DNA of 36,364 nt, from contig JAFZIQ010000025.1 in NCBI GenBank assembly GCA_017554285.1, forward strand, positions 1 through 36,364, given 5' to 3'. The position numbers and the translations under genes were made by a program. Under the pieces are notes generated by a model, which worked only from the letters and a program-made list of their open reading frames with translations, was not told where the DNA came from and made no database searches. Positions 12,761 through 36,236 of the stretch are shown here, one piece after another. The stretch comes from Selenomonadaceae bacterium. Its GTDB lineage: Bacteria; Bacillota; Negativicutes; Selenomonadales; Selenomonadaceae. Position 1 is the stretch's first letter, and every line of letters starts with the position of its first letter.

Positions 12761-12824
12761 ATTAGGAGTTAGGGACATAGGGACTAGAAGTTACTAGTCC
12801 CTAGCCCCTAGTCCCCAGTCCCTA
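12761..12824. repeat. Heptamer repeat tract with perfect palindrome
   Basis: Consecutive 7-bp units of the CTAGTCC type (four between 12794 and 12821). TAGGGACTAG (12778-12787) and CTAGTCCCTA (12794-12803) form a perfect 10-bp stem with a 6-nt loop. It lies between the permease stop and the amidase start and may end the transporter transcript. It belongs to the same family as the repeats at 32043, 33320, 34165 and 36191. Confidence 0.85.
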
Positions 12825-12826
12825 TT

Positions 12827-13471
12827 TCACGTTTCATATGAGCCGTAACGCTGTTCGAGTTTCTTGAATATCCAAGTCAATATCGCCGTCATGCCCAAAT
12901 AGAACATACCCGCGATAACAAACGGCGTCATGTCAAATTCGCGTTGTACTATCGTCCGCGCCACTCTCAACAAATCATTCATCGCCAAAATATAAATCAG
13001 CGAAGTATCTTTGACAAGGTTTATAGTCTCATTTGAAATCGGCGGCAAGACTACCCTCAACACTTGCGGGAAAATTATATAGCGCATCATCTGCCAATGT
13101 TTCAAGCCCAATGCCTTTGCCGCTTCATATTGCCCGCGTGGTATCGCTTGAATGCCTGCGCGGAAAACTTCTGCGAAATACGCCGCATAATTCAGAGTAA
13201 ATGCCAATAACGCCGCCGCCACGTCCGGTAACATTATCCCGACCATCGGCAACGCGAAGTACACGAACAACAGCTGCAACATTAACGGCGTACCGCGCAT
13301 TATCCAGACGTAAAACTCCATTAAGTAACGAATCGGCGCAAAACTTGAAATCCTGCCCAGTGCCGCCAATGCCCCGATTGGCAAGCTTAAAATTAAAGTC
13401 ACGAAGAAAATTTCCAACGTGACTTCCGCCCCTTGCATTATAAGGAGCGTCATATCCAAAAATTTTTCCAT
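12827..13471 (-). CDS. Polar amino acid ABC transporter permease (HisM/GlnP type)
   Basis: 214 residues with about five membrane helices, the size of HisQ/HisM/GlnP-type subunits. The EAA loop that docks on the ATPase is EAAKALGLKHWQMMRYIIFP. MRGTPLMLQLLFVYFALP and the region NLVKDTSLIYILAMNDL are typical of amino acid importers of this family. It starts 6 bp after the last of seven solute-binding lipoprotein genes. No ATPase gene is present here, so the subunit must be shared or encoded elsewhere. It could homodimerise, as GlnP-type permeases do. Confidence 0.93.
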   Translation of the reverse strand: MEKFLDMTLLIMQGAEVTLEIFFVTLILSLPIGALAALGRISSFAPIRYLMEFYVWIMRGTPLMLQLLFVYFALPMVGIMLPDVAAALLAFTLNYAAYFAEVFRAGIQAIPRGQYEAAKALGLKHWQMMRYIIFPQVLRVVLPPISNETINLVKDTSLIYILAMNDLLRVARTIVQREFDMTPFVIAGMFYLGMTAILTWIFKKLEQRYGSYET

Positions 13472-13477
13472 GACTTA

Positions 13478-14287
13478 TTAATTCTTAGACTTGATGAGGT
13501 CAGCTTTAAACCATTCATCGGAAATTTTCGCGGCGGCTCCGTCTTTAACCATTTCATCGAAGACGCCTTGAACTTTGTTGCGGAGGTCTGTGTCGTCTTT
13601 GCGGAAAGCAATTCCGAATTCGCTGACAGGACCGACAGTAACGTCGAGTGCCTCAAATTTTCCGTCCTGCTTGCTCATCGCATAACGTCCGACAATCTCG
13701 TCGCAGACAAGTGCGTCGATTCTGCCGTTCTCCAAATCCATGAACGCGCTGACATAATCGCCGTAAGTCTTAAATTCTCTGAAACTGTTCTTAAGGTTTT
13801 CGGTCTTGTCAATGTAAGATTCGGCAGTCGAGCCGGCTTGCGTTCCGATGCCTTTGCCCGCCAAATCAGCTTCAGCCTTAATGCCTTGATCGTTGCCCTT
13901 CTTCACGAAGACGATTTGGCGATTATCCATGTAAGGATCGCTGAACAACATATTTTCTTGACGTTCCGGCGTAATGTCTAAGCCGTTCCAAATTATGTCA
14001 ATGCGCCCGCTCTTAAGCTCAGCCTCTTTGCTGTTCCAGTCAATCGCTTTGAATTCGACTTTGCAACCCAAACGCTTAGCCGCCTCTTTAGCCAAATCAA
14101 CGTCGAAGCCTACGATTTCATTCTGTTCATTCTTGAATCCCATAGGCGCGTATTCGTCATCGAGTCCGATTGTAATTTTCTCAATCTTCTTCGAGTCGCC
14201 GCCGTCAGATTTAGGCTGGTCGCCCCCGCCGCAACCCGTAAACATCATCGTAACAAGGAGCAATACCGCCATAAAAATTTTTCTCAT
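13478..14287 (-). CDS. Amino acid-binding lipoprotein, array member 1 (permease-proximal)
   Basis: A family 3 solute-binding lipoprotein of 269 residues. Signal peptide MRKIFMAVLLLVTMMFTGC has the lipobox Cys. The ligand-site signatures are GLDDEYAPMGF (aromatic stacking residue), WNGLDITPER (Arg expected to hold the alpha-carboxylate) and VCDE (Asp for the amino group). The ATG at 14287 was chosen because it starts directly with the signal peptide; an in-frame ATG seven codons earlier is less likely. It has its own promoter and is followed by the permease after 6 bp, so it is the best candidate for the core binding protein of the system. Confidence 0.9.
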   Translation of the reverse strand: MRKIFMAVLLLVTMMFTGCGGGDQPKSDGGDSKKIEKITIGLDDEYAPMGFKNEQNEIVGFDVDLAKEAAKRLGCKVEFKAIDWNSKEAELKSGRIDIIWNGLDITPERQENMLFSDPYMDNRQIVFVKKGNDQGIKAEADLAGKGIGTQAGSTAESYIDKTENLKNSFREFKTYGDYVSAFMDLENGRIDALVCDEIVGRYAMSKQDGKFEALDVTVGPVSEFGIAFRKDDTDLRNKVQGVFDEMVKDGAAAKISDEWFKADLIKSKN

Positions 14288-14334
14288 ACCCCGGAAACAT
14301 CCTTTCATAAAAAAATTCGATTAAAACGCGTTGC

Positions 14335-14363
14335 ATTATACTTTATCGATTATTTCATTGCAA
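14335..14363 (-). promoter_or_regulatory. Internal promoter for array member 1 and the permease
   Basis: On the - strand TTGCAA (14358-14363), a 17-bp spacer and TATAAT (14335-14340), about 48 bp before the ATG. It lies in the longest gap of the array (83 bp), so the permease can be made without the other six binding proteins. Confidence 0.65.
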
Positions 14364-14370
14364 GCGCATT

Positions 14371-15147
14371 TCAACGGTTATGCTTAATCAAATCCGCTTG
14401 AAACCATTTAAGAGAAATTTCTCGCGCCGTGCCGTCCTTAATCATTTCGTTAAAAACTTCTTGAACTTTATCGCGAAGCTCGGCATTTTCTTTGCTGAAT
14501 CCTACTCCGAATTTCGTCGCGGGTCCTATTGTCAAATTGATAACTTTAAATGTAGCGGGGTGTCTCCTTATCTCATAACGCGCCGCTACTTCGTCGATAA
14601 TAATTATTTCGCATTCGCCGTTCCTTAACGACTCAAATTCATCTTTGATATTACGATAAGTTTTAAACTCGGCTAAACTTTCCTTGAGCCGTGTATTGCT
14701 GTTTATGTAGTCTTCGGAATTCGAGCCGGATTGAGTTCCGACGATTTTACCGGCAAGATCATATTCACTGCGAATTTCTTCATAATAATCGTCCCTTACC
14801 ATAAGAACTTGGCGATTGTTCATGTAAGGACGGCTGAAAACCATATATTCTTTGTATTCCTCCATGATGTCAAGCCCGTTCCAAATCATATCGACATTGC
14901 CGGAAGTTATTTCCTCCTCCTTGTTATTCCAGTCGATAGACTTGAATTCAAGCGCGACTCTCATACGACGCGCCGCCTCCTTAGCCAAGTCAACGTCAAA
15001 ACCGGTGAACTCTCCGTTTTCGTCTCGAAAACCCATTGGAGAAAATTCGTCATCAATCCCGATAATCAATTTGTTTTGCGCATTGGAATTGCTGCAACCC
15101 GTCACCAATAAAACCGCCGCGCAGATTGCTATTAAAATCTTTCTCAT
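14371..15147 (-). CDS. Amino acid-binding lipoprotein, array member 2 (Arg-to-Tyr variant)
   Basis: 258 residues with a lipoprotein signal ending LLVTGC. The aromatic site is kept (GIDDEFSPMGF) and so is the amino-binding Asp (IIDE), but the segment that normally reads ITPER reads IMEEYK: the residue matching Arg77 of HisJ/LAO is Tyr and the preceding Thr is Met. Member 5 has the same change and the same SNSEDYIN hinge-side motif, so the two are a subgroup that probably binds a different ligand or binds its carboxylate differently. GGGAG lies nine bases before the ATG. 83 bp separate its stop from member 1. Confidence 0.9.
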   Translation of the reverse strand: MRKILIAICAAVLLVTGCSNSNAQNKLIIGIDDEFSPMGFRDENGEFTGFDVDLAKEAARRMRVALEFKSIDWNNKEEEITSGNVDMIWNGLDIMEEYKEYMVFSRPYMNNRQVLMVRDDYYEEIRSEYDLAGKIVGTQSGSNSEDYINSNTRLKESLAEFKTYRNIKDEFESLRNGECEIIIIDEVAARYEIRRHPATFKVINLTIGPATKFGVGFSKENAELRDKVQEVFNEMIKDGTAREISLKWFQADLIKHNR

Positions 15148-15180
15148 ACCAAAAAACTCCCATAAAAAATTTCTTCAGGA

Positions 15181-15963
15181 TTATTTTCTTAACTTGATAA
15201 GGTCAGCTCCAAACCATTGCTCCGAAATTTTCTTCGCCGTGCCGTCTTTGATTATTTCATCAAATGCTTTTTGAACTCTGTCGCGCAGTTCCGTATCGTT
15301 TTTGCGAAAGCCGATTCCCATTTCGCAAGCCTTGCCGACTGTTATATTAACCAGCTCAAACTCGTTTCGATTCCGAATCATTTCAAAACACCCTATAATT
15401 TCATCGCAGACAATCGCGTCGGCGTTGCCGTTCTCCAAATCTTCAAAAGCTTCTTCATCGGTGACATAAATTTTAAATCCCGCGAGACTGTCTTTAAGCT
15501 TTTCATTATTTTCAATGTATATCGCAGACGTAGTGCCCGCCTTCGCGCCGACGATTCTGCCTTTAAGGTCGCCCTCAGAATATATATCGCGGTTATCGCC
15601 TTTCCTAACCATAATTATTTGGCGATTGTCCATGTAAGGCTTACTGAACAACATAACTTTCTTGCGTTCGGGCGTTATGTCGAGTCCGTTCCAAATCGCG
15701 TCGATATTGCCGGCTTCAAGCTCCTTTTCCTTATCAACCCAATTTATCAGCTTGAATTCAATCGTAACTCCCATGCGCTTTGCAGTCTCTTTGGCAAGTT
15801 CAATCTCAAAGCCGATAAATTCTCCTTTCTCATTGCGAAAACCCAGCGGCGATTCGTCCAGCCCCACTACGAATTTTTCTTGCGGATTGGAATTGCCGCC
15901 GCAACCCGCAAAAAACAATGCGCAAATCATAATGCATAACGCGTAATGAAATGACTTTTTCAT
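15181..15963 (-). CDS. Amino acid-binding lipoprotein, array member 3
   Basis: 260 residues; signal peptide MKKSFHYALCIMICALFFAGC. The carboxylate-binding Arg (WNGLDITPER) and the Asp (VCDE) are present. The first ligand loop is two residues shorter than in all the others and reads GLDESPLGF, so the aromatic residue that stacks on the ligand in HisJ-type proteins is missing. The corresponding motif GAKAGTTSAIY is also divergent. The hydrophobic core of its signal peptide is encoded by 7-bp repeats at 15917-15951. The gap to member 2 is 33 bp. Confidence 0.9.
   Translation of the reverse strand: MKKSFHYALCIMICALFFAGCGGNSNPQEKFVVGLDESPLGFRNEKGEFIGFEIELAKETAKRMGVTIEFKLINWVDKEKELEAGNIDAIWNGLDITPERKKVMLFSKPYMDNRQIIMVRKGDNRDIYSEGDLKGRIVGAKAGTTSAIYIENNEKLKDSLAGFKIYVTDEEAFEDLENGNADAIVCDEIIGCFEMIRNRNEFELVNITVGKACEMGIGFRKNDTELRDRVQKAFDEIIKDGTAKKISEQWFGADLIKLRK
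15917..15951 (-). repeat. Heptamer repeats (AATGCGT family) inside the member 3 signal peptide
   Basis: Five consecutive 7-bp units related to AATGCGT (+ strand), such as AATGCGC, AATGCAT and AACGCGT, encode the hydrophobic core YALCIMICAL. Confidence 0.75.
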
Positions 15964-15987
15964 CGTAACGACTCCTGTTTATCTTTG

Positions 15988-16755
15988 CTATTTGATAAGG
16001 TCGGCTCCAAACCATTTCTCCGAAATTTTTTGGGCAGTGCCGTCGGCGATAACTTTATTAAAAGCCTCTTGAACTCTGTCGCGTAATTCTTTGTCCTCTT
16101 TGCGAAAACCGATTCCGATTTCGGTAGCGATTCCTATCGTCACATTGATTATCCTAAACTTTTTCTGATTTTGGATTATCTCGTAGCGGGCGGTTATTTC
16201 GTCGCAAATCAACACGTCAACCACTCCGCTCTCCAAATCCTCAAATGCCTTTTTGTAGGTTTTATAAGTCCTGAAATCCTTAAAAGTGTCTTGAAGGTCT
16301 TCGTTTTTAATCACATAAACTTCGGCAGTCGAGCCGGCTTGCGTTCCGACAATTTTTCCAGCCAAGTCTTTTTCGGATTTGATTTCCAATTTACTGTCCG
16401 CCTTAACCAAAAGTATTTGCCGATTATCCAAATAGGGCTTGCTGTAGAGAATATTTTTCTTGCGTTCGGGCGTTATGTCCAAGCCGTTCCAAATAATATC
16501 AATATTGCCCGTCTTGAGTTCGATAATTTTGTTATCCCAATTAATAGGCTTGAATTCAATCGTAACTCCCATACGTTTAGCCGTCTCTTTAGCCAAATCA
16601 ATATCGAAGCCGACAAGTTCGCCCTGTTCGTCTCGGAAGCCCATAGGCGCGTATTCGTCATCGAGTCCGATAACCAATTTTGTCGGCTTACTGACTTCGC
16701 CGCAACCCGTCATCAGCAAAACAATCGCGCAGATTGCCGCAAATAACTTTTTCAT
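15988..16755 (-). CDS. Amino acid-binding lipoprotein, array member 4
   Basis: 255 residues; signal MKKLFAAICAIVLLMTGC without heptamer repeats. All three canonical ligand contacts are present: GLDDEYAPMGF, WNGLDITPER and ICDE, plus GTQAGSTAEVY. It is closest in motif to member 1, which suggests that the pair share a ligand class, probably a polar or basic amino acid. The gap to member 3 is 24 bp; no promoter is visible. Confidence 0.91.
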   Translation of the reverse strand: MKKLFAAICAIVLLMTGCGEVSKPTKLVIGLDDEYAPMGFRDEQGELVGFDIDLAKETAKRMGVTIEFKPINWDNKIIELKTGNIDIIWNGLDITPERKKNILYSKPYLDNRQILLVKADSKLEIKSEKDLAGKIVGTQAGSTAEVYVIKNEDLQDTFKDFRTYKTYKKAFEDLESGVVDVLICDEITARYEIIQNQKKFRIINVTIGIATEIGIGFRKEDKELRDRVQEAFNKVIADGTAQKISEKWFGADLIK

Positions 16756-16770
16756 GACGAAACCCTCCGT

Positions 16771-17577
16771 TTATCTCTTAGCTTTAATGAGATCAACTCC
16801 AAACCATTGTTCAGAAATTTTTTTAGCCGTGCCGTCATTAATCATTTCGTCGAAAACTTTTTGAACTTCGTCGTGCAACTTAATATTGTCTTTGCGAAAA
16901 CCTATTCCAAATTCCGTGACGGGACCTACCGTCAATTCAATAACTTCAAACGCGCCGGGATTTCTGACCAATTCATAACGCGCCGCAATTTCATCGACTA
17001 TGATAACGTCAAATTTTCCTTCGCTCAAAGATTTGAAGCCCTCTCTGACATCAATATACTTTTCAAACGAAGCAAAACTGTTTTTAAGCTCCGGATTGTC
17101 GTTGATATAATCTTCGGAGTTCGAGCCGGCTTGCGTCCCGACAATTTTATTTGCAAGGTCGCTTAACTTGCCGATATTTTGAGTATTGCCATTCCTGACC
17201 AAAAGAATTTGCCGATTGTCCATGTAAGGCTTGCTGAACATCATATAACTTTTGTATTCGTCCATAATGTCGCAACCGTTCCAAATCATGTCAATATCGC
17301 CGGAAGTTATCTCAGCCTCTTTGTTGTCCCAAATAATCGGCTTGAATTCAATCGCGACACCCATACGCTTAGCCGCCTCCTTAGCCAAATCAACGTCGAA
17401 GCCGATAATATTTCCGTTTTCGTCACGAAAACCCATTGGCGCAAAGCCGTCATCAATCCCGATGATTATTTTCCCGCGATTAATCGAAGTATTGCTGTCC
17501 GCCGAATTGCCGCCGCAACCCGCGATAAACAATGCGCAAAGCGTAATGCATAATGCGTAATGAAATAACTTTTTCAT
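16771..17577 (-). CDS. Amino acid-binding lipoprotein, array member 5 (Arg-to-Tyr variant)
   Basis: 268 residues; signal MKKLFHYALCITLCALFIAGC. As in member 2, the ligand segment reads WNGCDIMDEYK, so the Arg that should bind the carboxylate is Tyr and the Thr is Met, while GIDDGFAPMGF and the Asp (IVDE) remain. It shares the SNSEDYIN motif with member 2. The ATG at 17577 was chosen because GGGGAGGG lies just upstream; an in-frame start five codons earlier falls in that site. The signal-peptide core is encoded by heptamer repeats at 17531-17565. The gap to member 4 is 15 bp. Confidence 0.9.
   Translation of the reverse strand: MKKLFHYALCITLCALFIAGCGGNSADSNTSINRGKIIIGIDDGFAPMGFRDENGNIIGFDVDLAKEAAKRMGVAIEFKPIIWDNKEAEITSGDIDMIWNGCDIMDEYKSYMMFSKPYMDNRQILLVRNGNTQNIGKLSDLANKIVGTQAGSNSEDYINDNPELKNSFASFEKYIDVREGFKSLSEGKFDVIIVDEIAARYELVRNPGAFEVIELTVGPVTEFGIGFRKDNIKLHDEVQKVFDEMINDGTAKKISEQWFGVDLIKAKR
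17531..17565 (-). repeat. Heptamer repeats (AATGCGT family) inside the member 5 signal peptide
   Basis: Five consecutive 7-bp units (AATGCGC, AAAGCGT, AATGCAT and so on, + strand) encode HYALCITLCAL. Confidence 0.78.
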
Positions 17578-17592
17578 AACAGCCCTCCCCAT

Positions 17593-18399
17593 TTATCTCC
17601 TTTTACTTCTGATAAGGTCGGCTCCAAACCATTGCTCGGAAATTTTTTTAGCAGTGCCGTCCTTAATCATTTCGTCGAAAGTCGCCTGAATTCTGTCGCG
17701 TAACTCTGTATCTTCTTTGCGAAAACCGATGCCCGTCTCGGTTATAACGCCAATTTTAATATCGATTATCTTTAATTGGTCGGGGTGAGTATTCATTTCA
17801 TAACGGGCAATAAGTTCATCACAAACAATAAGTTCAATTTCATCGTTCATTAAAGCCACAATCGCATCTTTAAATCTGTCGTAAGTTTTATGCTCACCCA
17901 AAACGTCTTTAAAATTTCTTTTAAGATAACAATCCGAAGTCGAGCCGGCTTGCGTTCCGATAATCTTACCTGCCAAATCGTGTTCCGAATAAACAGGCAA
18001 CGTGCAATCCCTCTTAGCCAAAACTATTTGGCGGTCGTCCATGTAAGACTTGCTGAATATCATATAACTTTTGCGCTCTTCGGTTATGTCAAGCCCGTTC
18101 CAAATTATATCTATGTGACCCGAAAGAATTTCTTCGCGCTTATTATCCCAATTAATGGGCTGAAATACCATATTAACACCCATGCGTCTGCCGACTTCTT
18201 TAGCCAAATCAACGTCAAAGCCGACAAGTTCGCCGCGTTCATTTCTGAATCCCATTGGCGGGAAATCGTCATCCAATCCGACGATAATTTTTTGTTGTCC
18301 TTTGAAATCGCCGCAACCGCCGAAAAGCAATGCACAAACTGCAATTAGGAATGCGTAATGCGCAATGCGTAATGAGTAATAGAAAAATCTTTTCATCAT
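17593..18399 (-). CDS. Amino acid-binding lipoprotein, array member 6
   Basis: 268 residues with an unusually long signal peptide (about 32 residues, ending LLFGGC). Canonical contacts are present: GLDDDFPPMGF, WNGLDITEER and VCDE. Two ATG codons in tandem (18399 and 18396) could start it; an upstream extension is not signal-like. The binding site before them is weak (GGGG). The extra length of the signal is made of heptamer repeats at 18350-18377. The gap to member 5 is 15 bp. Confidence 0.89.
   Translation of the reverse strand: MMKRFFYYSLRIAHYAFLIAVCALLFGGCGDFKGQQKIIVGLDDDFPPMGFRNERGELVGFDVDLAKEVGRRMGVNMVFQPINWDNKREEILSGHIDIIWNGLDITEERKSYMIFSKSYMDDRQIVLAKRDCTLPVYSEHDLAGKIIGTQAGSTSDCYLKRNFKDVLGEHKTYDRFKDAIVALMNDEIELIVCDELIARYEMNTHPDQLKIIDIKIGVITETGIGFRKEDTELRDRIQATFDEMIKDGTAKKISEQWFGADLIRSKRR
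18350..18377 (-). repeat. Heptamer repeats (AATGCGT family) inside the member 6 signal peptide
   Basis: Four consecutive 7-bp units (AATGCGT, AATGCGC, AATGCGT, AATGAGT, + strand) encode SLRIAHYAF, the clearest copy of this family in the window. Confidence 0.85.
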
Positions 18400-18421
18400 A
18401 AAAACCCCGTAAGGATTAAAA

Positions 18422-19240
18422 TTATTTGTTCGTTCTGATAAGGTCGGCTCCAAACCATTTCTCGGAAATTTTTTCGGCAGTGCCGTCCTTAATCATTTCG
18501 TCAAAAACTTTTTGAAATCTGTCGTGCAATTCGGTTGCGTCTTTGCGGAATCCTACCGCCAATTCTGTAATCGGACCGACTGTCGCCTCGATTGCCTCAA
18601 ATTTATCAAGGTGACGATGCATTTCATAGCGGACAACCAATTCATCACAAATAACCGCGTCAACTTCGCCGTTCTCCAGAGCTTTAAATACGTGTTCATA
18701 GTTATCGTAAGTTATGAATTTGCCGAAACTTTCCTTGAGAGTTTTATCATAAGCAAGGTATTCGTCCGAAGGAGCACCCAACTGAGTACCGACAACTTTA
18801 CCCGCAAGGTCGGCAGCAGATACTATGCCTTTATTTGCGCCCTTCGCCACCAAAATAATTTGGCGGTTAAGCATGTAAGGCTTGCTGAAAAGAATATACT
18901 CCTTGCGTTCGGGTGTAATGTTAAAGCCGCTCCAAATAATATCAATTTTCCCTTCCGTAATCTCCGCCCGCTTGTTATCCCAATCTATGGGACGAAATTC
19001 GACTGTGACGCCCATGCGTTCGGCGACTTCTTCGGCAAGGTCAATGTCAAAGCCGACAATTTCATTATCATCATTTCTGAATCCGAACGGCGCGTAAGCG
19101 TCATCAAGTCCGATAATAAGTTTTTGATTAGGCGTTTCGGCGTCTTCAACTTCGACGGCTTTTTTTTCTTCGCCAATGCAACCCGTGAAAAGCAATGCAA
19201 GATTTATAATCAGGAATGCGTAACAAAAAATTTTCCTCAT
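18422..19240 (-). CDS. Amino acid-binding lipoprotein, array member 7 (promoter-proximal)
   Basis: 272 residues, first gene of the array. Signal MRKIFCYAFLIINLALLFTGC is followed by a short acidic tether. Ligand motifs are GLDDAYAPFGF, WSGFNITPER and ICDE; the GTQLGAPSDEY motif and the Ser-Gly-Phe-Asn change mark it as the most divergent member that keeps the Arg. AGGAG eight bases before the ATG at 19240 supports the start. A good promoter lies 40-70 bp upstream. Diverged 7-bp units (19194-19228) also underlie its signal peptide. Confidence 0.9.
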   Translation of the reverse strand: MRKIFCYAFLIINLALLFTGCIGEEKKAVEVEDAETPNQKLIIGLDDAYAPFGFRNDDNEIVGFDIDLAEEVAERMGVTVEFRPIDWDNKRAEITEGKIDIIWSGFNITPERKEYILFSKPYMLNRQIILVAKGANKGIVSAADLAGKVVGTQLGAPSDEYLAYDKTLKESFGKFITYDNYEHVFKALENGEVDAVICDELVVRYEMHRHLDKFEAIEATVGPITELAVGFRKDATELHDRFQKVFDEMIKDGTAEKISEKWFGADLIRTNK

Positions 19241-19279
19241 ACAGTAAACTCCTCTCCAAAAGAGAATTGCCTTGCTTGA

Positions 19280-19309
19280 ATTATATTTTAAGTATCGCGT
19301 GCTTGTCAA
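19280..19309 (-). promoter_or_regulatory. Main promoter of the binding-protein array
   Basis: On the - strand TTGACA (19304-19309), an 18-bp spacer and TATAAT (19280-19285), about 40 bp before the ATG of member 7. No operator is evident. Confidence 0.75.
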
Positions 19310-22340: not shown

Positions 22341-23789
22341 TCAATCATTAATTTTTACAACATCGGACGCTTGAAAGGCTTCCATTGCGCCCGTAAGATT
22401 CTTGCGAGCGGGTTCGGACATATTGTTTAGAACGGGCGACGGCAACTTTGTATCGACGACGTAAGAAAATTTTATCGTCCGCCCCGTATTCTGCGCGGCT
22501 TGCCGTTCAAAATCCTTTTGAATTTTCTTAAACATATTCGCAGTAACTGCCGATTTAAAGCCCAAGTTCAAAGTGTCACCCGTAAAACTGAGGACTCTTA
22601 CTTTATCGCGAATATATTTTACGTCCGAAATTTCTCCGCTTAATGAATCCGCTGTATCATAAAAAATTTTTTGCCCTGCGTCAAGATTTTCATTGGGCAA
22701 AGAAATCTGCGCGGGTTGCGACGCTGTAAAAGTTTGAACGGGCGCGGCAAGTTTCATCAATGTCATTTCCAAAATTATATCGGGAATGCCGGAGCCGTTC
22801 ATTTCAATCGTTGCTTTTCTCAGCGCGTCGATAAAATTATCCGGCTCGGAGAAATTTTTTTCATTACGGTCGAGCATGTCAAATTCAATATCGCGGAGCC
22901 GTGTGATTAATGATTCGGCGATAATATTTGCCGATAAACCCGACCTGAAAGCTTGCGTAATCGCTCTGCCGACTGCCGCTCTGTCTTTAGCTTTGACTGC
23001 GGAAATTATTTCGTCCAAATTTTCATCGGAAATTAATCCCAAAGTTTCGTTTACGTCGTCAAGGGTAATTTCCTTATCAGCCATTGCATAGCATTGGTCG
23101 AGATAAGTCATCGCGTCGCGCATTGAACCTTCAGCAAGCCGAGCGATTTTTTTAGCCGCCTCTTCCTGCAAACCCACGTTCAATCTTCTTGCCAACGTCA
23201 AAAGGTACGGCGCAATTATCGACGGCGGTATCAGTCTGAAATTCAAAACTTGACAGCGCGAGCGAATTGTCATCGGCACTTTATTTATTTCGGTCGTCGC
23301 CAAAAAAAATGCCACATTCGGCGGCGGCTCCTCAATTAATTTCAAAATCGAATTGACTGCCTCGAACGACAGCATATGAACTTCGTCGATTATAAAAGTT
23401 TTGACGCGTGCTCTGAGCGGCGCAAGATAAGCGGTCGATAAAAGGCGCGTGACATCTTCAACCGAACGATTGGACGCGGCGTCAAACTCCACATTATCGG
23501 GCGATGAGTCAAAGGATTTACATGATTCGCATTTATTGCAAGGGATTTCTTTTTTATCAAGCGGACGACCGGCAAGTTGTGCCTCGTGAACTCTGTCGCA
23601 ATTCATAGCTTTGGATAAAAGCCGTGCCGTAGAAGTTTTGCCCGTGCCGCGAGTGCCGACCAATAAATAAGCGTGTGACAATCTGCCGCTTGAAATTGCT
23701 CGCGTCAAGGCGTTTGAAATGTGCTCTTGCCCGATTAATTGCGACAAAGTTTTTGGTCTGCCGCGTGTATAAAGTGCCTCGTATGCCAT
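22341..23789 (-). CDS. dnaX: DNA polymerase III subunit gamma/tau
   Basis: The clamp-loader ATPase. Walker A is GTRGTGKT (45-52), and zinc is bound by Cys64, Cys84, Cys87 and Cys90. Walker B is IDEVHM, and the arginine-finger region TTEINKVPMTIRSRC follows. At 482 residues the protein is at the short end for tau-like forms, with a brief C-terminal region after the collar domain. The start is ATG 23789 with AAAGGAA upstream. A self-complementary element with a T-run lies only 20-30 bp upstream, so it may be the end of a separate RNA or a leader that affects dnaX. Confidence 0.95.
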   Translation of the reverse strand: MAYEALYTRGRPKTLSQLIGQEHISNALTRAISSGRLSHAYLLVGTRGTGKTSTARLLSKAMNCDRVHEAQLAGRPLDKKEIPCNKCESCKSFDSSPDNVEFDAASNRSVEDVTRLLSTAYLAPLRARVKTFIIDEVHMLSFEAVNSILKLIEEPPPNVAFFLATTEINKVPMTIRSRCQVLNFRLIPPSIIAPYLLTLARRLNVGLQEEAAKKIARLAEGSMRDAMTYLDQCYAMADKEITLDDVNETLGLISDENLDEIISAVKAKDRAAVGRAITQAFRSGLSANIIAESLITRLRDIEFDMLDRNEKNFSEPDNFIDALRKATIEMNGSGIPDIILEMTLMKLAAPVQTFTASQPAQISLPNENLDAGQKIFYDTADSLSGEISDVKYIRDKVRVLSFTGDTLNLGFKSAVTANMFKKIQKDFERQAAQNTGRTIKFSYVVDTKLPSPVLNNMSEPARKNLTGAMEAFQASDVVKIND

Positions 23790-23807
23790 AGAAAATTCCT
23801 TTCGCGC

Positions 23808-23949
23808 AAAAAAAATTTCAGCCGTCAACGCAAAGGCTTAATCTCATTCCGAAGCTGCGCTACAATAACCGCTCGTTGCTGCGTATGCCCTGGCGAGCTT
23901 GTCAGTACAGTTTGTGTTCGGCGAAACCAAGTCTCTGCGTTCACGGCTG
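23808..23949 (-). ncRNA. Unidentified self-complementary element with T-run (candidate small RNA)
   Basis: The ends of 23819-23949 pair over 15 or more bp: CAGCCGT with ACGGCTG, one mismatch, then AACGCA with TGCGTT, another mismatch and further pairs. Inside, GCTCG (23871-23875) pairs with CGAGC (23894-23898) and CCGAA with TTCGG. On the - strand the element ends in eight T just before dnaX, like an intrinsic terminator. It lacks the conserved SRP RNA core expected at this locus in Firmicutes and is not recognised as 6S, RNase P or tmRNA. It could instead be a miniature palindromic repeat. Confidence 0.4.
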
Positions 23950-23963
23950 TGAATTCAATTTAT

Positions 23964-23984
23964 AATTCGTAATGCGTAATTGCA
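23964..23984. repeat. Short AATGCGT-family heptamer tract
   Basis: Three 7-bp units, AATTCGT, AATGCGT and AATTGCA, between the structured element and tRNA-Ser; same family as the repeats in the lipoprotein signal peptides. Confidence 0.5.
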
Positions 23985-25300: not shown

Positions 25301-25963
25301 TTATTTCCCTCCAAAACTAATCTTATCAAAAATTTCCAACGGGTGGTCGATAATTATTTCTGCGCCGCTCTCGACAAGTTCACTGCGCGGACGAAATCCC
25401 CATGTCACTCCGATTGCCAAGAATCCCGCGTTAATAGCCGTCTGAATATCAACTGCCGTGTCGCCGAAATATGCCACGTCTTCGGGAGCTACGCCGAAAC
25501 TTTTTGCGCCCGCCAATGCGCGAGTCGGATTTGGTTTTCTCGGAAGACCGGGTTCGTCGCCGCTGACGTAAGAAAATTTTATCGGCGCAAGAACTTTATC
25601 CGCAATTTCAATCGCCGCGAAGTGTTGCTTGTTCGTGCAAATGCCCAGCGGTATTTTTTTCGCCTCAAGCGTAGTCAAAAGCTCCATGATTCCTTCGTAA
25701 GGCTTGATTTTCTTCAAACAGTTGCGGGCATAACAGCCGTCGTAATATTTCAAAGCCTCGTCAACGAAATTCTCCTTATCGGCGGGCAAACTCCTAACCA
25801 TTAATTTTCTTGCGCCGTTGCCGACGAATTGTCTGACTTCATCAAGCGTCCTTAACGGAAAATTATAGTGAGCAAGCATTTCATTAACGCTTTCATGTAA
25901 ATCTGCCAGCGTGTCCGTCAATGTGCCGTCCAAATCGAATATCGCCGCTTTATAAGTCTTCAT
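25301..25963 (-). CDS. HAD-family phosphatase (phosphoglycolate phosphatase-like)
   Basis: 220 residues of the HAD superfamily with a helical cap of the Gph/PGMB type. Motif I is FDLDGTLTDT with the nucleophile Asp, motif II CTNK, the motif III lysine is in RKPNP, and motif IV is FGDTAVD. Members remove phosphate from 2-phosphoglycolate or other small phosphoesters; the substrate is not decided by sequence alone. Its ATG overlaps the murI stop as ATGA, so the two are translationally coupled. Confidence 0.85.
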   Translation of the reverse strand: MKTYKAAIFDLDGTLTDTLADLHESVNEMLAHYNFPLRTLDEVRQFVGNGARKLMVRSLPADKENFVDEALKYYDGCYARNCLKKIKPYEGIMELLTTLEAKKIPLGICTNKQHFAAIEIADKVLAPIKFSYVSGDEPGLPRKPNPTRALAGAKSFGVAPEDVAYFGDTAVDIQTAINAGFLAIGVTWGFRPRSELVESGAEIIIDHPLEIFDKISFGGK

Positions 25964-26742
25964 GTCACCGCCTCCATTTCGTCCAAACGTCTTAAAAATT
26001 TCTCCAGTCGAGCCAATTCAGCCGAATCTGTTACGCGCCTTTTTGAGTAAAAAAATTTAATTTCCCTGACACCTGACACCTGACTCCTGATTCCTTTAAC
26101 TCGGCGAATCAATTCATTAACGGTTCCCGCGTTCCCGTCCAAAATTTTCACGTGCGAAGGCAAGATTTTTCTCAGCGTATCTTTGAAATAGTTAAAATGC
26201 GTGCAACCCAACACCAATGACGAAAATTTTTCAAAGTCATAATCGGCAAGCTCGCCGCGCAGATAACTTTCAACCGCCGCCGAATTAAATTCCTGTCGCT
26301 CCGCAAATTCTACCAGTCGAGGCAACGCTTTAAGCTCCACAAAATTTTCCGCATGAAGTTTTTCTATCAGCAAGCGAATTTTCTCGCCCGTGATTGTTAT
26401 CGCCGTCGCCGTAACCAAAACTTTTCGCGCGGGAAATAAATCCAACGCAACTTTTAACGCCGGCTCCATTCCAATTATCGGCAATGAATATTTTTCGCGC
26501 ATTTTCTTTACCGCTGCCGAAGTCGCCGTATTGCAAGCCACCACTATCGCTCCGACGCCCTGCGCGATTAAAAATTTGAATGCCTCGTCCACAAATTTTA
26601 ATACTTCTTCGCGTGATTTCGTCCCGTAAGGAACATTATCTTCATCTGCATAAAATATAAATTCTTCTTGCGGCAAAATTTTCAGCGCGTGATGCAAAAC
26701 CGATAAGCCGCCCATTCCCGAATCGAAAAACGCTATCTTCAT
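25960..26742 (-). CDS. murI: Glutamate racemase
   Basis: MurI makes D-glutamate for peptidoglycan. The two catalytic cysteines are Cys70 (VVACNTATS) and Cys180 (LGCTHF); Asp7 is in FFDSGMGG. The length (260) is normal only because the C-terminal part carries an unusual stretch GIRSQVSGVR, which is encoded by four 7-bp repeats at 26065-26092 and is not expected in this family. The gene overlaps the DUF445 gene upstream (ATGA) and the phosphatase gene downstream (ATGA). Confidence 0.94.
   Translation of the reverse strand: MKIAFFDSGMGGLSVLHHALKILPQEEFIFYADEDNVPYGTKSREEVLKFVDEAFKFLIAQGVGAIVVACNTATSAAVKKMREKYSLPIIGMEPALKVALDLFPARKVLVTATAITITGEKIRLLIEKLHAENFVELKALPRLVEFAERQEFNSAAVESYLRGELADYDFEKFSSLVLGCTHFNYFKDTLRKILPSHVKILDGNAGTVNELIRRVKGIRSQVSGVREIKFFYSKRRVTDSAELARLEKFLRRLDEMEAVT
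26065..26092 (-). repeat. Heptamer repeats (CCTGACA family) inside murI
   Basis: Four consecutive 7-bp units (CCTGACA twice, CCTGACT, CCTGATT, + strand) in frame in murI, encoding IRSQVSGV. Confidence 0.88.
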
Positions 26743-29560: not shown

Positions 29561-29585
29561 ATAAAAAAATTTCGGGAGGAAAATT

Positions 29586-31066: not shown

Positions 31067-31081
31067 AGTTCAAAACTCCTT

Positions 31082-31954: not shown

Positions 31955-31993
31955 ATATCGCAACATCTCCTTGAAAAACTTCATCATAAATTT

Positions 31994-32656
31994 TTATTTC
32001 CTCATCGGACAATCAATCTTATTACAGGCAGCGCAATTCCCTTGTCCCTTGCCCCTTGTCTCTTGTCCCTTTTTTTCGAGTCCGATAATTGCCGTAACGG
32101 ATTTTCTCGGCTCCAACATCATTGCCGAAGTTAAACTTATTCCGATTTGTTCCGCGCCCGAAATTTTAAAAAGTTTTTCCTGCGCCGTCAAATCCCAATC
32201 GCCGTAACCGGGACTGAATCGCCAACGCATTTTATATCCTTCCTTAGAAAATTTCGCCGCAAAATTTTTCTCCATTAAATCAGCCGCCTGTTCGACTGCC
32301 GCAGTAGCCGCCGCGTCCAACAGTACCGAATTTAAATATTCTCCGCGCTCAAATTTTTTATTAATCTCCCGTTCAATCGCCGCGCCGACCGTTACCGCCA
32401 CACAGATTACTTTCTCGCAACCGCTAAGGTGTTTTATAATCGAATTGCCCGCGATTGTAAAGGGCGGCTCGCTTTCGACCGTGCAATTTTTATAATCGTA
32501 AAGCTCCCAGACGCCTCGAACTTCCGAAAGTATCAGAGCTTCCGCGCAGGCGTCCGCAATATTTTTCTCGCCGAAATTTTGAGCTGTCTTTAAGCCCGCG
32601 TAGCGACGAGTTTCCGCCGCGTCTATCTCCAAAATCTGCGCGTTATATATCGGCAA
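31994..32656 (-). CDS. Stand-alone MetH reactivation-domain protein
   Basis: 220 residues resembling the C-terminal activation domain of cobalamin-dependent methionine synthase: RFSPGYGDWDLTAQEKLF, then MMLEPRKSVTAIIGL and a cysteine-rich end (CAACNKIDC). In E. coli MetH this domain binds SAM to remethylate oxidised cobalamin; here it is a separate gene 15 bp after a metH that lacks it, a split known in Firmicutes. The start is TTG at 32656 with AGGGGG upstream. Before the cysteine cluster, the segment EKKGQETRGKGQGN is encoded by 7-bp repeats and looks inserted. Confidence 0.85.
   Translation of the reverse strand: MPIYNAQILEIDAAETRRYAGLKTAQNFGEKNIADACAEALILSEVRGVWELYDYKNCTVESEPPFTIAGNSIIKHLSGCEKVICVAVTVGAAIEREINKKFERGEYLNSVLLDAAATAAVEQAADLMEKNFAAKFSKEGYKMRWRFSPGYGDWDLTAQEKLFKISGAEQIGISLTSAMMLEPRKSVTAIIGLEKKGQETRGKGQGNCAACNKIDCPMRK
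32043..32070 (-). repeat. Heptamer repeats (TGTCCCT family) inside the MetH-activation gene
   Basis: Four consecutive units TGTCCCT, TGCCCCT, TGTCTCT, TGTCCCT (+ strand), with a partial fifth before them, encode the Gly/Lys/Gln-rich loop near the C-terminus. Confidence 0.85.
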
Positions 32657-32671
32657 AATTTTTTCCCCCTC

Positions 32672-35029
32672 TTATTCGCCGATTAAATTTTTAGCCAAAC
32701 GAACAGCCTCAACGCCGTCTTTGGCATAAGCGTCCGCGCCGGCAGAATCGGCATATTCCTGCGTCAAAGCCGCGCCGCCGACCATGACTTTAGCCGCACA
32801 GCCCGCCGCGTGTAAATCGGCAATGACTTTATCAATCTGAATCATCGTCGTTGTCATAAGGGCGCACAGTCCGACAATATCGGCGTCATTTTCAATGGCG
32901 GCTCGAACGATTTCCGCCGAGTCAACGTCTTTTCCCAAATCGATAAGTTTAAAGCCGCTGTTTGAAATCAAAGCTCCGACGATATTTTTGCCCAAATCGT
33001 GAACGTCACCTTTAACCGTCGCGATAACAAAAGTTCCGTGCGTCTTGGTTTCCTGCGCGGGCAGAATTTTTTTCAATTCGTCAAAGGCTAGCCGCATGGT
33101 TTCGGCACTCAATAAAACTTGCGGCAAGAAAATTTTACCGGAGCCGAAATCTTCGCCGAGTTCGTTCATTGCGGCAGTTAAAGCGCGTTCGGTTATTTCA
33201 TCGGCAGAAAAATTTTCATCGACAGCCTTTTTAATCAGCGCGGGGATTTCGTCTTTGTCGCCCTCCTGAACGGCAATTTTAATCGCGTCGAGAGTCGGCA
33301 AAGCAATGATATTTTTCTGTTCCCTGTTCCCTAATCCCTGTTCCCTGCTGAAGTTCAGTCCGTTGGGGTCTTTTCCGAGCAAGGCGGCGGCAGATTTCAA
33401 AACATTTTGCATTGATTCATCGTAGGGATTCATAATCGGAGCGTCGAGTCCTGCGGCAAGGCACATTGCAAAGAACGTGCTGTTAATCAACGGGCGATTA
33501 GGCAAGCCGAAAGAAATATTACTTAAACCCATAGTCGTCGGCAAGCCGAATTGTTCACGATAAAGTTTCAGAGTGTTTAAAACCTCAAGGCAAGCATTTT
33601 TATCTGCGGAAATAGTCATGACAAGGGCATCGAGCAGAAAATCTCCGTCGTCAAGTCCATGAGCTTTGGCGGCGTCGATAATTTTTTTGGCAACGGCAAC
33701 ACGTTCGGCAGAAGTTTTTGGAACGCCCTTTTCAGTCAGAGGAAGAATTAAAATTGCGGCTCCGTAACGTTTTGCTAGCGGCAGAAAATTTTTAATGCGG
33801 TCAGGCTCAAAACTCACGGAATTAATCAGCGCACGACCGGGAAAATTTTTTAAGCCAGCTTCCAAAGCCTCCGCGTCGCCGGTATCGATTGCCAAAGGCG
33901 CGTCGGTTATTCGAGCGATTTCTTTAACCGCCTCAGCCATCATTTCGGGCTGATTAATGCCGCCGACGCCCATATTGACATCAAGAATTTTCGCGCCTGC
34001 CTTGACTTGATTGAGAGCGTCCTTTTTAACGCCTAAAAGCGAACCTTCGCGAATTTCTGCGGCTAATTTTTTCCTGCCTGTAGGATTAATTCGTTCGCCT
34101 ATTAAAACTGTCGGCAAATTTTTATCGATATTAACCGTCTTGCTCCTAGTTGCCAACATAAGTGTAGGGACAAGGGACGAGGGATTAGGGATTAGTTTTT
34201 TTACGACGTTTGCCAGTTCGCGGATATGTTCGGGCGTCGTGCCGCAACAACCGCCCAAATAACTTGCGCCCGCCTCGACAAGTTTGATTCCCCACGAGCC
34301 GAAAGTTTTGGCGTCCATAGGAAATTTGGTTTTGCCGTCTTCAAGATAGGGCATACCCGCATTGGGCTGAACGCTGACAGGAACGCGACAATTTTCCGCC
34401 AAAATCTTAACGACGGGAACTAATTGTTCCGGACCGAGCGAACAGTTGACGCCGATAATACTTGCGCCCATAGCGTCGAGAATAACGGCGGCAGATTGCG
34501 GGTCGGTGCCCGTGACGGTTCGACCGTCTTCGCTATAGGAAAGTTGGCAGATAATCGGCAAATTGCAAACGTCCTTAGCCGCAAGTAAAGCCGCCCGCAT
34601 TTCTTGAATATCAATGCACGTCTCGATAATAAGAAAATCCGCGCCCGCTTCCGCCAATGCCAAAGCTTGTTCGCGAAAAATATTATAAGCGTCGTCGAAG
34701 TCCAAATCACCGAGCGGCGAAATAAATTTACCTGTAGGACCGATTGAACCCGCGACTTTGGCTTGAGATTGAGCGGCTTCTTTGGCGATTTTCACGGCGG
34801 CGAAGTTCAATTCATGAACGCGATTTTCAAGCCCGTAATGAGCGAGCTTTAAACTCGACGCGCCGAAAGTATTTGTCTCAATAATCGTTGCGCCCGCCTC
34901 AATATAAGCGCGGTGAATTTTCTTCACAACTTCGGGTGCCTCAATGTTCATAAGTTCGGGACACGCGCCCGCCTTCAAGCCGCCCGCTTGCAACATTGTA
35001 CCCATTGCCCCGTCAAAAATTTCTATCAT
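32672..35029 (-). CDS. metH: Cobalamin-dependent methionine synthase MetH, without activation domain
   Basis: MetH transfers a methyl group from methyltetrahydrofolate through cobalamin to homocysteine. In order: homocysteine domain (1 to about 278) with zinc Cys196, Cys261, Cys262; pterin domain (about 305-555); four-helix cap (about 578-660); B12 domain with DVHDLG (675-680), whose His677 is the cobalt ligand. The SAM-binding activation domain is absent and supplied by the next gene. Start ATG 35029 has AAGGAAGT eight bases upstream. Two interdomain linkers (about 279-291 and 561-571) are encoded by 7-bp repeats. Confidence 0.96.
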   Translation of the reverse strand: MIEIFDGAMGTMLQAGGLKAGACPELMNIEAPEVVKKIHRAYIEAGATIIETNTFGASSLKLAHYGLENRVHELNFAAVKIAKEAAQSQAKVAGSIGPTGKFISPLGDLDFDDAYNIFREQALALAEAGADFLIIETCIDIQEMRAALLAAKDVCNLPIICQLSYSEDGRTVTGTDPQSAAVILDAMGASIIGVNCSLGPEQLVPVVKILAENCRVPVSVQPNAGMPYLEDGKTKFPMDAKTFGSWGIKLVEAGASYLGGCCGTTPEHIRELANVVKKLIPNPSSLVPTLMLATRSKTVNIDKNLPTVLIGERINPTGRKKLAAEIREGSLLGVKKDALNQVKAGAKILDVNMGVGGINQPEMMAEAVKEIARITDAPLAIDTGDAEALEAGLKNFPGRALINSVSFEPDRIKNFLPLAKRYGAAILILPLTEKGVPKTSAERVAVAKKIIDAAKAHGLDDGDFLLDALVMTISADKNACLEVLNTLKLYREQFGLPTTMGLSNISFGLPNRPLINSTFFAMCLAAGLDAPIMNPYDESMQNVLKSAAALLGKDPNGLNFSREQGLGNREQKNIIALPTLDAIKIAVQEGDKDEIPALIKKAVDENFSADEITERALTAAMNELGEDFGSGKIFLPQVLLSAETMRLAFDELKKILPAQETKTHGTFVIATVKGDVHDLGKNIVGALISNSGFKLIDLGKDVDSAEIVRAAIENDADIVGLCALMTTTMIQIDKVIADLHAAGCAAKVMVGGAALTQEYADSAGADAYAKDGVEAVRLAKNLIGE
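33320..33347 (-). repeat. Heptamer repeats in the MetH pterin-cap linker
   Basis: Four consecutive units (TTCCCTG, TTCCCTA, ATCCCTG, TTCCCTG, + strand) encode REQGLGNREQ at residues about 562-571. Confidence 0.9.
34165..34195 (-). repeat. Heptamer repeats in the MetH homocysteine-pterin linker
   Basis: Four consecutive units (TAGGGAC, AAGGGAC, GAGGGAT, TAGGGAT, + strand) plus TAG encode LIPNPSSLVPT at residues about 279-289. Confidence 0.9.
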
Positions 35030-35051
35030 CAAAAATCACTTCCTTAATATT

Positions 35052-36086
35052 TTATTCCAATGCGGCGCGAATCACAAAGATAATTTCGCCGTCGTCGCGC
35101 TCGGAAGAACTTTCAAGCCGCGCAGATTTGGCAACAGAATTTTTCACACGCCCCAAATAATTTTTCAGAGTGTCTGTGTTATCGGTTATGCCCTCAATCT
35201 CCAATAAATTTTCTTCGGCGCGAAGTTTGGTTAAGCGAATATTTTTATCGGAAATTCTTCCGAGATTGATTAGGAGATTAAAATTTTGCAACGTCTCAAC
35301 CTGCGCGGCAATCCGATTTATTCGGTGAAGTTCGTCAATATTTTCGTCCAGAGTTTTCTTCAAAGCAATATCTTCGCTTAAACTTTCCACAGAAATTTTT
35401 GCCGCGTCAAGTTTATCCGAAGCCTCGCCGTAATCAAGAAAAAGTTTTATCGAGCCGCCGATTAATGCGATTAAGAATATTGCCGCCGCCGCATAGGAAA
35501 TTTTTTGCCAATTAATCAAGCCGCCTCGTGTCGTTAAAAGATTCGGAGCTTTTCTTTCGCGAATGATTTCTGTTATGAATTCCGTCCTGTCGTAAGGGTG
35601 AATCTTTGTCAGCAAGTCGACAGGCATGACCGACAGCCCGCGCAGATTCAATCCGAACTTTTTAAACGCGCCGAAAATTTCTTCAGCCGTTGTCTCAGGC
35701 AAAGTTTCCATCCAAAGTTCCTCGCCGACTTTAGTAAATGAAAAAATTGCGTCCTCGCCCGCCTGCGCGATTGCCCAACTTTTAACCAGCGCGGGAATTT
35801 CTTTTTCGGGTATGTTATCAATTTCTGTTTGAAAAGTTACGGCGTCATCGTTGCGAAGGCAAAATCCTATTGATGAAGTCTTCCACCCCTTTTGCTTACA
35901 GACTTGAAAAATTTTCTCTGCGATTTGTTCAAACTCCGAGCTGTCGGATTCAATTTCAATCGTCTCAAATTTTTTGGTAAGTCTGGCGATAAAAATCTTT
36001 TCTCCGTCAAAATATGCGCCGATAACTTCGCCGCTATCCTCAAGAAAAAATTTCTTAATCGGCTCCAAAAACTCCCTGACGCCCAA
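35052..36086 (-). CDS. Bitopic PilM/PilN- or GspL-like assembly protein (probable)
   Basis: 344 residues. A cytoplasmic N-terminal part (1 to about 190) opens GEVIGAYFDGEKIFIARL and resembles the actin-like fold of PilM/GspL but lacks a clear ATP site. One membrane helix follows at about 197-217, then a coiled coil (about 222-275) and a small C-terminal domain with IRLTKLRAEENLLEIEGITD, as in PilN. This is the layout of a PilM-PilN fusion or GspL in type IV pilus or type II secretion platforms. No pilus gene is adjacent, and the family call is tentative. The start is TTG at 36086, four bases after GGAGGTGA. Confidence 0.5.
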   Translation of the reverse strand: MGVREFLEPIKKFFLEDSGEVIGAYFDGEKIFIARLTKKFETIEIESDSSEFEQIAEKIFQVCKQKGWKTSSIGFCLRNDDAVTFQTEIDNIPEKEIPALVKSWAIAQAGEDAIFSFTKVGEELWMETLPETTAEEIFGAFKKFGLNLRGLSVMPVDLLTKIHPYDRTEFITEIIRERKAPNLLTTRGGLINWQKISYAAAAIFLIALIGGSIKLFLDYGEASDKLDAAKISVESLSEDIALKKTLDENIDELHRINRIAAQVETLQNFNLLINLGRISDKNIRLTKLRAEENLLEIEGITDNTDTLKNYLGRVKNSVAKSARLESSSERDDGEIIFVIRAALE

Positions 36087-36173
36087 AATTTCACCTCCCA
36101 AAAAATTCTCCGTTATTGTATTCAAAAAGTTTCCGTTGTGCAATTAACCGAAATGAAAATACTTTATCCGAGC

Positions 36174-36236
36174 AAAAAAAATCCCTACACAGGGAGTAGG
36201 GAACAGGGATTAGGGACTAGGGATTAGGATTTTTTA
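36174..36236. terminator. Heptamer repeats embedded in a terminator-like hairpin
   Basis: AATCCCTA (from 36180) can pair with TAGGGATT (36218-36225). A-run and T-runs flank it on both sides. The loop consists of five consecutive 7-bp units of the AGGGANT type (36191-36225). It would end the partial - strand gene at the window edge. Confidence 0.6.

What the first reader, a model, noticed from the sequence alone, without database searches (positions are those of the whole stretch)
12761..36228. Dispersed families of 7-bp tandem repeats, many inside reading frames
At least eleven tracts of strictly 7-bp periodicity occur in about 24 kb, in three sequence families: AGGGANT/TGTCCCT type (12761, 32043, 33320, 34165, 36191), AATGCGT type (15917, 17531, 18350, 23964, diverged at 19194) and CCTGACA type (26065). 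Eight lie in coding sequence and stay open, and the coding copies use unit variants that avoid stops, whereas the intergenic copies contain TAG in several frames. Similar heptamers (STRRs) are known from cyanobacteria; how widespread they are in this lineage, and what spreads them, is unclear to me. The shared 7-bp period across unrelated sequences hints at one mechanism.
Basis: partly seen in the sequence, partly recalled or inferred. Interest (0 to 1): 0.75.

Follow-up and report, generated by a model that had tools for sequence, protein, structure and literature searches.

The report
Five-step heptamer repeats overwriting protein linkers
A rumen bacterium and many of its close relatives carry short DNA pieces made of about five steps of seven letters, which appear to be copied from place to place and to replace stretches of dispensable sequence, even inside enzymes, with little change in length.

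Summary
The tracts are real. The host is an uncultured rumen Selenomonadaceae near Quinella. Tracts recur through its genome and in 11 of 16 genus genomes sampled (host included); AAT-type tracts are nearly absent from ten other-genus Selenomonadaceae and a Bacillota sample.

They are not simple slippage tracts. In the AAT family 38 of 56 runs have exactly five anchors at 7-nt steps, with position-specific spacers and conserved flanks. Exact 28-nt blocks recur at different loci. Many tracts form convergent pairs, 12 of 41 with clearly different units. In orthologous MetH linkers and a B12-activation protein one slot holds different heptamer families, sometimes a period-8 version, or none, at similar length. 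MetH linker 1 needs at least 12 gains or losses.

Convergent pairs and a four-unit preference are published for Xanthomonas GGGAATC repeats; their spread is unexplained. Best reading: polar half-elements copied as short patches that overwrite host DNA; the copying step is inferred. No reverse transcriptase or Ku was found in the host, and Y1 transposase does not track density.

The parts
12754..12822 (.). Intergenic inverted pair: left TTAGG/TAGGGAC-type arm (12754-12787) and right CTAGTCC arm (12794-12822)
   Evidence: RNA of the minus strand folds at -36.5 kcal/mol, z -2.8
15918..15948 (-). Decayed AATGCGT-like tract in the signal-peptide region of a family-3 solute-binding protein (15181-15963)
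   Evidence: score 7 only, not significant alone; SBP_bac_3; extent judged by eye
17530..17562 (-). AATGCGT-family tract in the signal-peptide region of the solute-binding protein 16771-17592
   Evidence: score 13.5
18350..18380 (-). AATGCGT-family tract in the signal-peptide region of the solute-binding protein 17593-18453; a six-anchor run counting the upstream AATTAGG unit
19193..19223 (-). Strongly diverged AATGCGT-like stretch in the solute-binding protein 18422-19309
   Evidence: below score 5; judged by eye
23957..23980 (-). Four-anchor AAT tract between dnaX (22341-23828) and tRNA-Ser (23990-24081)
   Evidence: score 9.5
26065..26095 (-). CCTGACA tract in the Asp/Glu-racemase-like gene 25960-26742
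   Evidence: score 19; the one relative found among held loci (L184, 71% identity) is one residue longer there, without the peptide
32038..32071 (-). TCCCTTG tract in the C-terminal part of the Met_synt_B12-like protein 31994-32656
   Evidence: score 17; orthologs hold AATTAGG, AACTAGG or no tract in the same slot
33317..33347 (-). AGGGANN tract in MetH linker 2 (gene 32672-35032)
   Evidence: same site in L009; linker comparison
34166..34195 (-). TAGGGAC tract in MetH linker 1, between the S-methyltransferase and pterin-binding domains
36191..36228 (+). AGGGANN tract upstream of the ORF 35052-36143, flanked by A and T runs
   Evidence: weak fold, z -1.2

Best explanation
The tracts are members of a lineage-limited class of dispersed, non-coding, polar micro-elements. 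In its typical form one half-element is about 31 nt: short anchors at 7-nt steps (occasionally 8), variable spacers between them, and for the AAT family an outer flank AAA.GC. It occurs alone or as two half-elements facing each other across 0-33 nt, sometimes from different families. Existing copies are re-used: short patches carrying a half-element or a pair are copied into new sites, where they overwrite host DNA. Survivors sit where sequence is tolerant: intergenic DNA, signal peptides, interdomain linkers, tails. Shown: the AAT architecture, block identity, family swaps at one site, small length change in the coding slots compared. Inferred: that copying works by microhomology-guided short-patch synthesis with ordinary repair enzymes rather than a dedicated enzyme, and that the 7-nt period began as old slippage.
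For: Of 56 runs of AAT at 7-nt steps in the 100 listed of 110 places, 38 have exactly five anchors, 15 four, 3 six; chi-square against a geometric decline 52.5. Over all families 45 of 77 tracts from 16 genomes are 28-34 nt, mode 31. Spacers are position-specific (MI 0.497; maximum of 2000 permutations 0.465) with conserved flanks (38 elements). Identical elements: 6 pairs against 1.0 expected, p 0.004. One exact 28-nt block recurs at several loci of three genomes. MetH linker 1: without lag-7 tract mostly 132 (26) or 135 (22) nt of 58; single tract 132-138 (11); pairs 153 and 159. At least 12 tract/none changes and 17 with families on a tree of 50 orthologs. L020 and L072 hold different families in equal lengths with about 95% identical flanks. 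42 of 77 tracts have a neighbour within 40 nt against about 0.7 expected.
Against: No donor-to-target event was seen at population level. Small length change could partly reflect selection on linker length; against the nearest tract-free relatives coding singles range from -12 to +9 nt, and a single tract just upstream of MetH (L020 2560) is +24, +24, +23 and -140. The five-step rule is sharp only for the AAT family; other families were judged by overall length, and TAG and AGGGA runs vary more. Dependence between spacers is significant only for 2-3 and 3-4 of six combinations. Why five steps, and why convergent, is not explained. SPDIR-like patching is recalled; two searches listed no paper describing it.
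Confidence: 0.5

Rival explanations
1. Replication slippage independently expands local 7-nt words at each site, 7 nt being favoured by the polymerase.
For: Heptamers are the commonest long simple repeats in most genomes of one survey, and a polymerase-contact idea was proposed for it (reported in PMC4679880, introduction read). Nine fetched loci from other Bacillota hold mostly regular arrays of 36-129 nt, as slippage gives.
Against: Peaked anchor number, position-specific spacers, exact blocks at different loci, family swaps at one site, small length change, and a period-8 class of similar step number. MutS is over cut-off in G000 and in 35 of 41 genomes.
Confidence: 0.12
2. Each half-element is added to a broken DNA end by templated tailing, and the tailed ends are then joined, giving convergent pairs; host DNA lost by resection makes it a replacement. 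This would resemble interstitial telomere repeats.
For: 41 of 50 distinct pairs are convergent and 1 divergent; 12 of the 41 have units differing at three or more of seven positions. Arms of AAT pairs are hardly more alike within a pair than between pairs: 9.1 against 8.6 of 16 variable positions, 8 combinations from 6 loci. MetH pairs of 69-79 nt give net gains of 12-27 nt, so about 45-54 nt of host linker is gone.
Against: No reverse transcriptase (PF00078) match in G000, G010, G015 or G024, though five genus genomes have one, among them tract-rich G022 and G023. No Ku in any of 25 genus genomes. Parts of pairs, junction included, are copied as a block (L246 and L264 share 51 nt exactly). 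My polarity motif list was chosen after seeing pairs.
Confidence: 0.12
3. A transposase mobilises them as REP- or MITE-like elements.
For: Convergent pairs resemble element ends; G000 has one complete and one partial Y1 transposase match.
Against: Y1 gives no match in tract-rich G015, G022, G023, G024 and G010 (assemblies 82-94% complete). Replacement is not transposon-like. Other transposase families were not tested.
Confidence: 0.1
4. The tracts are maintained because they work: terminators, G-quadruplexes or RNA-protein binding sites.
For: The window pair 12754-12822 folds well (z -2.8). A/T runs flank many copies. The GGG types could form G-quadruplexes, as shown in vitro for Xanthomonas repeats (PMC4692102).
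Against: No enrichment between convergent genes (5 of 33 intergenic tracts against 81 of 424 gaps; rough ORF calling). Of five other window tracts folded, four gave z above 0 and one -1.2. AATGCGT, AATTAGG and AAGCTT families lack GGG runs yet share the length. Mixed pairs cannot form full hairpins.
Confidence: 0.1

Closest known systems
GGGAATC / GGGGA(C/T)T heptamer repeats of Xanthomonas and Nostoc (Rehm et al. 2015, PMC4692102; abstract and sections 10, 11, 14, 16 read)
   Same: Dispersed degenerate heptamers, majority with four units, closely spaced convergent pairs (70 cases in Xcc, 75 in Xac), length and sequence variation between related species at the same place; mechanism unknown.
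   Different: There one G-rich family, 89-93% intergenic in Xanthomonas (68% in Nostoc, few pairs), linked by the authors to G-quadruplexes. Here many families including ones without GGG runs, mixed-family pairs, in-frame replacement in enzymes, and a period-8 variant.
TAACTGA direct repeats of marine Beggiatoaceae, some cyanobacteria and Bacteroidetes (MacGregor 2015, PMC4679880; abstract and sections 3, 8, 15, 24 read)
   Same: Dispersed 7-bp direct repeats, mainly intergenic, some in ORFs; spread unexplained.
   Different: One exact unit; [quoted passage not shown]
Cyanobacterial STRRs (heptanucleotide repeats; recalled, original papers not read)
   Same: Degenerate dispersed heptamers; several unit families seem similar.
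   Different: The five-step, convergent-pair and replacement features were not tested there.
Rickettsia palindromic elements (passages of review PMC10969869)
   Same: Short elements found in frame inside unrelated protein genes.
   Different: About 150 bp and described as insertions; no 7-nt period noted in the passages seen.

Membership tests
STRR-like dispersed heptamer repeats | Tandem 7-nt units dispersed at many loci of one genome | tested here: met
   25 tracts in 217 kb; other lags 0-3 except lag 14 with 15; 110 AAT-type and 176 AGGGA-type pattern hits genome-wide, overlapping hits included
Xanthomonas-type heptamer repeats | Two tracts close together in convergent orientation | tested here: met
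   41 of 50 distinct pairs convergent, 1 divergent, 8 other; by G minus C, 20 of 27 and 0 divergent
Xanthomonas-type heptamer repeats | Preference for four units | tested here: met
   45 of 77 tracts 28-34 nt; 38 of 56 AAT runs with five anchors, i.e. four intervals
Xanthomonas-type heptamer repeats | Unit GGGAATC or close to it | tested here: not met
   Unit list: many families, several without GGG
G-quadruplex repeats | Four G-tracts of three | tested here: not met
   Not met for the AATGCGT, AATTAGG and AAGCTT families by sequence; possible for AGGGANN
Simple slippage SSR | Copy number declining with length; independent units at each site | tested here: not met
REP/RAYT elements | Y1 transposase in element-rich genomes | tested here: not met
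   No match in five tract-rich genus genomes, which are incomplete
Telomerase-like or retro-copied repeats | Reverse transcriptase present | tested here: not met
   PF00078: no match in G000 (88.7% complete), G010, G015, G024; present in G007, G013, G017, G022, G023
Intrinsic terminators | Stable hairpin at gene ends | tested here: inconclusive
   One strong fold of six window tracts; no enrichment between convergent genes
MITE | Insertion with target-site duplication | tested here: inconclusive
   No scan for target duplications was made; coding sites compared show replacement rather than insertion

The most novel reading that the evidence does not exclude
A polar, reverse-transcriptase-independent process writes a fixed five-step tract onto DNA ends or gaps from a set of templates and rejoins them, a telomere-like patching that repeatedly rewrites protein linkers; heptamer repeats of Xanthomonas and cyanobacteria would be products of the same process.
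Probability: 0.12. Interest if true: 0.9.

Novelty: new variant of a known kind. Interest (0 to 1): 0.62.

Why it matters
Dispersed heptamers have been known in cyanobacteria and a few other groups without an accepted origin. This clade offers a natural experiment: dozens of related genomes, with the same slots of conserved enzymes filled by different tract families or none at similar length. That makes the origin testable, and it weakens G-quadruplex formation as the general reason for the four-unit preference, since families without GGG runs share the length. It also shows a way by which bacterial protein linkers can be rewritten wholesale.

Tried and rejected
Linked enzymes: reverse transcriptase (absent from the host, present in 5 of 25 genus genomes including tract-rich G022 and G023), Y1/RAYT transposase and Ku (0 of 25 genus genomes) do not track density. 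Loss of MutS or RecJ: both have matches in 41 of 41 genomes, over cut-off in 35 and 39. SbcC: matches in 40 of 41, none over the curated cut-off, so it says little. Other candidate genes were not searched.

Hairpin fold-back as origin of pairs: arms agree at 6-12 of 16 variable positions, mean 9.1, against 8.6 between pairs (8 combinations from 6 loci). Terminator role as main cause: no orientation preference.

Same unit on plasmids: one record, Caballeronia, three places; the one fetched is a longer single array (55 nt at lag 7) without the five-step form. A peptide-string literature search gave nothing.

Controls that fail or cut against: the backwards control is useless because the unit read backwards repeats itself; that gave 32 against 110; that gave 1 in the host but up to 9 in other genomes, so period-7 arrays of other units do occur elsewhere in Bacillota.

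Choices that could bias counts: C164 and C188 were put in the own-genome sample because one search had shown hits there. The 40 regions were picked, leaving out several lone four-anchor hits, so the fair anchor count is (100 of 110 places), not. One search dropped the AATCC-type runs (2 of 40). Polarity motifs were chosen after viewing pairs, and some pairs share a half. Five MetH linker labels (L009, L014, L113, L057, L109) were set by hand; one search shows a period-8 tract for the first four, L109 is by eye. One single-tract linker (L060) is weak. Orthologous length comparisons used the five nearest tract-free relatives per tract; those against L009 (a period-8 pair) gave -21 and -27 and are set aside.
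Full report
Host and setting. The window is contig C208 of an unnamed 2.37-Mb assembly, 88.7% complete. Its MetH-like protein (32672-35032, minus strand) is 93% identical to a Selenomonadaceae MAG from water buffalo and 88% to Quinella sp. 1Q5. The window holds seven family-3 solute-binding proteins (13478-19309), a LeuA-like gene, dnaX, a tRNA-Ser, a racemase-like (MurI) gene, and MetH with a B12-activation-like neighbour.

Is it real? A lag autocorrelation scan finds eight period-7 tracts in the window at score 11 or more, and 0-1 at other lags of 4-13. In 217 kb of host sequence there are 25 at period 7, none after third-order Markov shuffling, and at most 3 at any other tested lag except 14, the harmonic (15).

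How widespread? In 16 genus genomes sampled, host included (1.03 Mb, 77 tracts), density runs from 0 to 20.8 per 100 kb; 11 of 16 have at least one, and the five without had 24-62 kb sampled each. Among 80 MetH loci, those titled Selenomonas, Mitsuokella or Anaerovibrio have none, and so has the Quinella sp. 1Q5 locus (titles). In a Bacillota sample of 398 genomes the AAT-type pattern is in 14: 49 hits in the host, 1-4 in each of the other 13, none in ten same-family genomes of other genera. The backwards control gave 1 in the host and up to 9 elsewhere. Nine fetched loci of the other genomes hold mostly regular arrays of 36-129 nt.

Architecture. In the AAT family of the host, 38 of 56 runs of AAT at 7-nt steps have exactly five anchors (15 four, 3 six), against 13.8 under the best geometric fit. 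The four spacers differ by position (first mostly TAGG or GCGT, 13 and 9 of 38; last GCGT in 22 of 38), beyond within-element shuffling, with a common flank AAA.GC before and (G/T) then A- or T-rich after. Across families the commonest length is 31 nt. Relatives carry period-8 versions of 35-37 nt at MetH linker 1 (L009, L014, L057, L113) and of 33-37 nt elsewhere (L024, L063 twice, L176). So step number may be more constant than period; this is an inference from few cases.

Pairs. 42 of 77 tracts have another tract within 40 nt, against about 0.7 expected. By G minus C, 20 of 27 pairs are (+,-), none (-,+) and 7 have like signs. With a motif-based polarity over a wider set, 41 of 50 are convergent, one divergent and 8 unclear or like-signed; 18 of 50, and 12 of the 41 convergent ones, have units differing at three or more of seven positions. 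AAT five-anchor runs alone give six loci, all convergent. Rehm et al. (PMC4692102; abstract and sections 10, 11, 14, 16 read) describe convergent pairs and a four-unit preference for GGGAATC in Xanthomonas and relate the four units to G-quadruplexes. Families here without GGG runs share the length, so that cannot be the general reason.

Replacement at orthologous sites. In MetH linker 1 the common linker (e.g. VKNLSPAPRRFNRPLM) gives way in different relatives to CCCTAAT, CTAGTTC, CTAGTCC, AATTAGG, AATGCGT, AGCT or period-8 tracts. Over 71 orthologs at 72% identity or more, linkers without a lag-7 tract are mostly 132 (26) or 135 (22) of 58, single-tract ones 132-138 (11), pairs 153 and 159. 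On a tree of 50 orthologs built without the linkers, linker 1 needs at least 12 tract/none changes, 17 with families; linker 2 needs 8. L020 and L072 hold AATTAGG and AATGCGT tracts in 43 nt each with flanks about 95% identical; L021 and L022 hold inverted pairs of different families at one place, 74 and 94 nt, where L072 has none. The B12-activation protein has four states in one slot, three at one length and one a residue shorter; MurI differs by one residue from the only relative found, at 71% identity. Against near tract-free relatives, coding singles range from -12 to +9 nt and MetH pairs from +12 to +27; outside genes the picture is mixed (L020 2560: +24, +24, +23, -140).

Copying. Among 38 five-anchor AAT elements identical pairs number 6 against 1.0 expected with columns shuffled, and pairs sharing three of four spacers 40 against 21. 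Pairs are re-used too: host loci L246 and L264 share 51 nt exactly, an AGCT half with the junction and the first AAT units, but differ in the outer AAT units.

Where tolerated. 23 of 77 tracts lie wholly inside ORFs of a rough caller that covers 91% of bases, so coding DNA is depleted; 33 intergenic tracts show no preference for gene orientation. In the window the coding copies are in signal-peptide regions, interdomain linkers, a C-terminal part and a MurI segment.

Mechanism. Candidates with a known enzyme were tested and not supported. What remains is copying of existing blocks into short patches that overwrite host DNA. I favour microhomology-guided short-patch synthesis by ordinary repair (recalled as SPDIR; two searches listed no paper describing it) over slippage, transposition or end tailing. 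It explains neither the five-step rule nor the convergent polarity, which are the strongest reason to keep the end-tailing reading alive.

Novelty. Dispersed heptamers are a known kind; this is a new variant with several added regularities. The rows listed by searches, and a find in the Quinella genome paper (PMC9585023), showed no earlier description in Selenomonadaceae. Not every matching paper was listed (20 of 70, 8 of 1,158 and 8 of 151), and subscription papers were mostly not searchable.

Noticed in passing
L126:12456-12525 and L178:12301-12370: A 70-nt stretch identical in the host and a relative whose neighbouring sequence is about 84% identical: a GC-rich hairpin ending in T's whose loop is a five-anchor YTAG heptamer tract; the downstream sequences differ.
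   Followed up: partly
L009:10866-10900, L113:225-260, L057:3452-3488, L063:3990-4025 and 5928-5960, L024:5341-5375: Period-8 tracts of four to five steps in relatives; the first three are at MetH linker 1.
   Followed up: partly
window 13478-19309: Seven consecutive paralogous family-3 solute-binding proteins; two have a clear AATGCGT-type tract in the signal-peptide region, two a decayed one, while the others have ordinary-looking signal peptides.
   Followed up: partly
L041 (MetH linker 1): Linker 1 region is 219 nt, with extra sequence lacking detected heptamer periodicity.
   Followed up: no
L129:14138-14209 and L135:16237-16308: Two host loci share 33 nt exactly, the left half of an AAGCTT inverted pair including an odd AAGGTGT unit; the right halves are similar, not identical.
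   Followed up: partly
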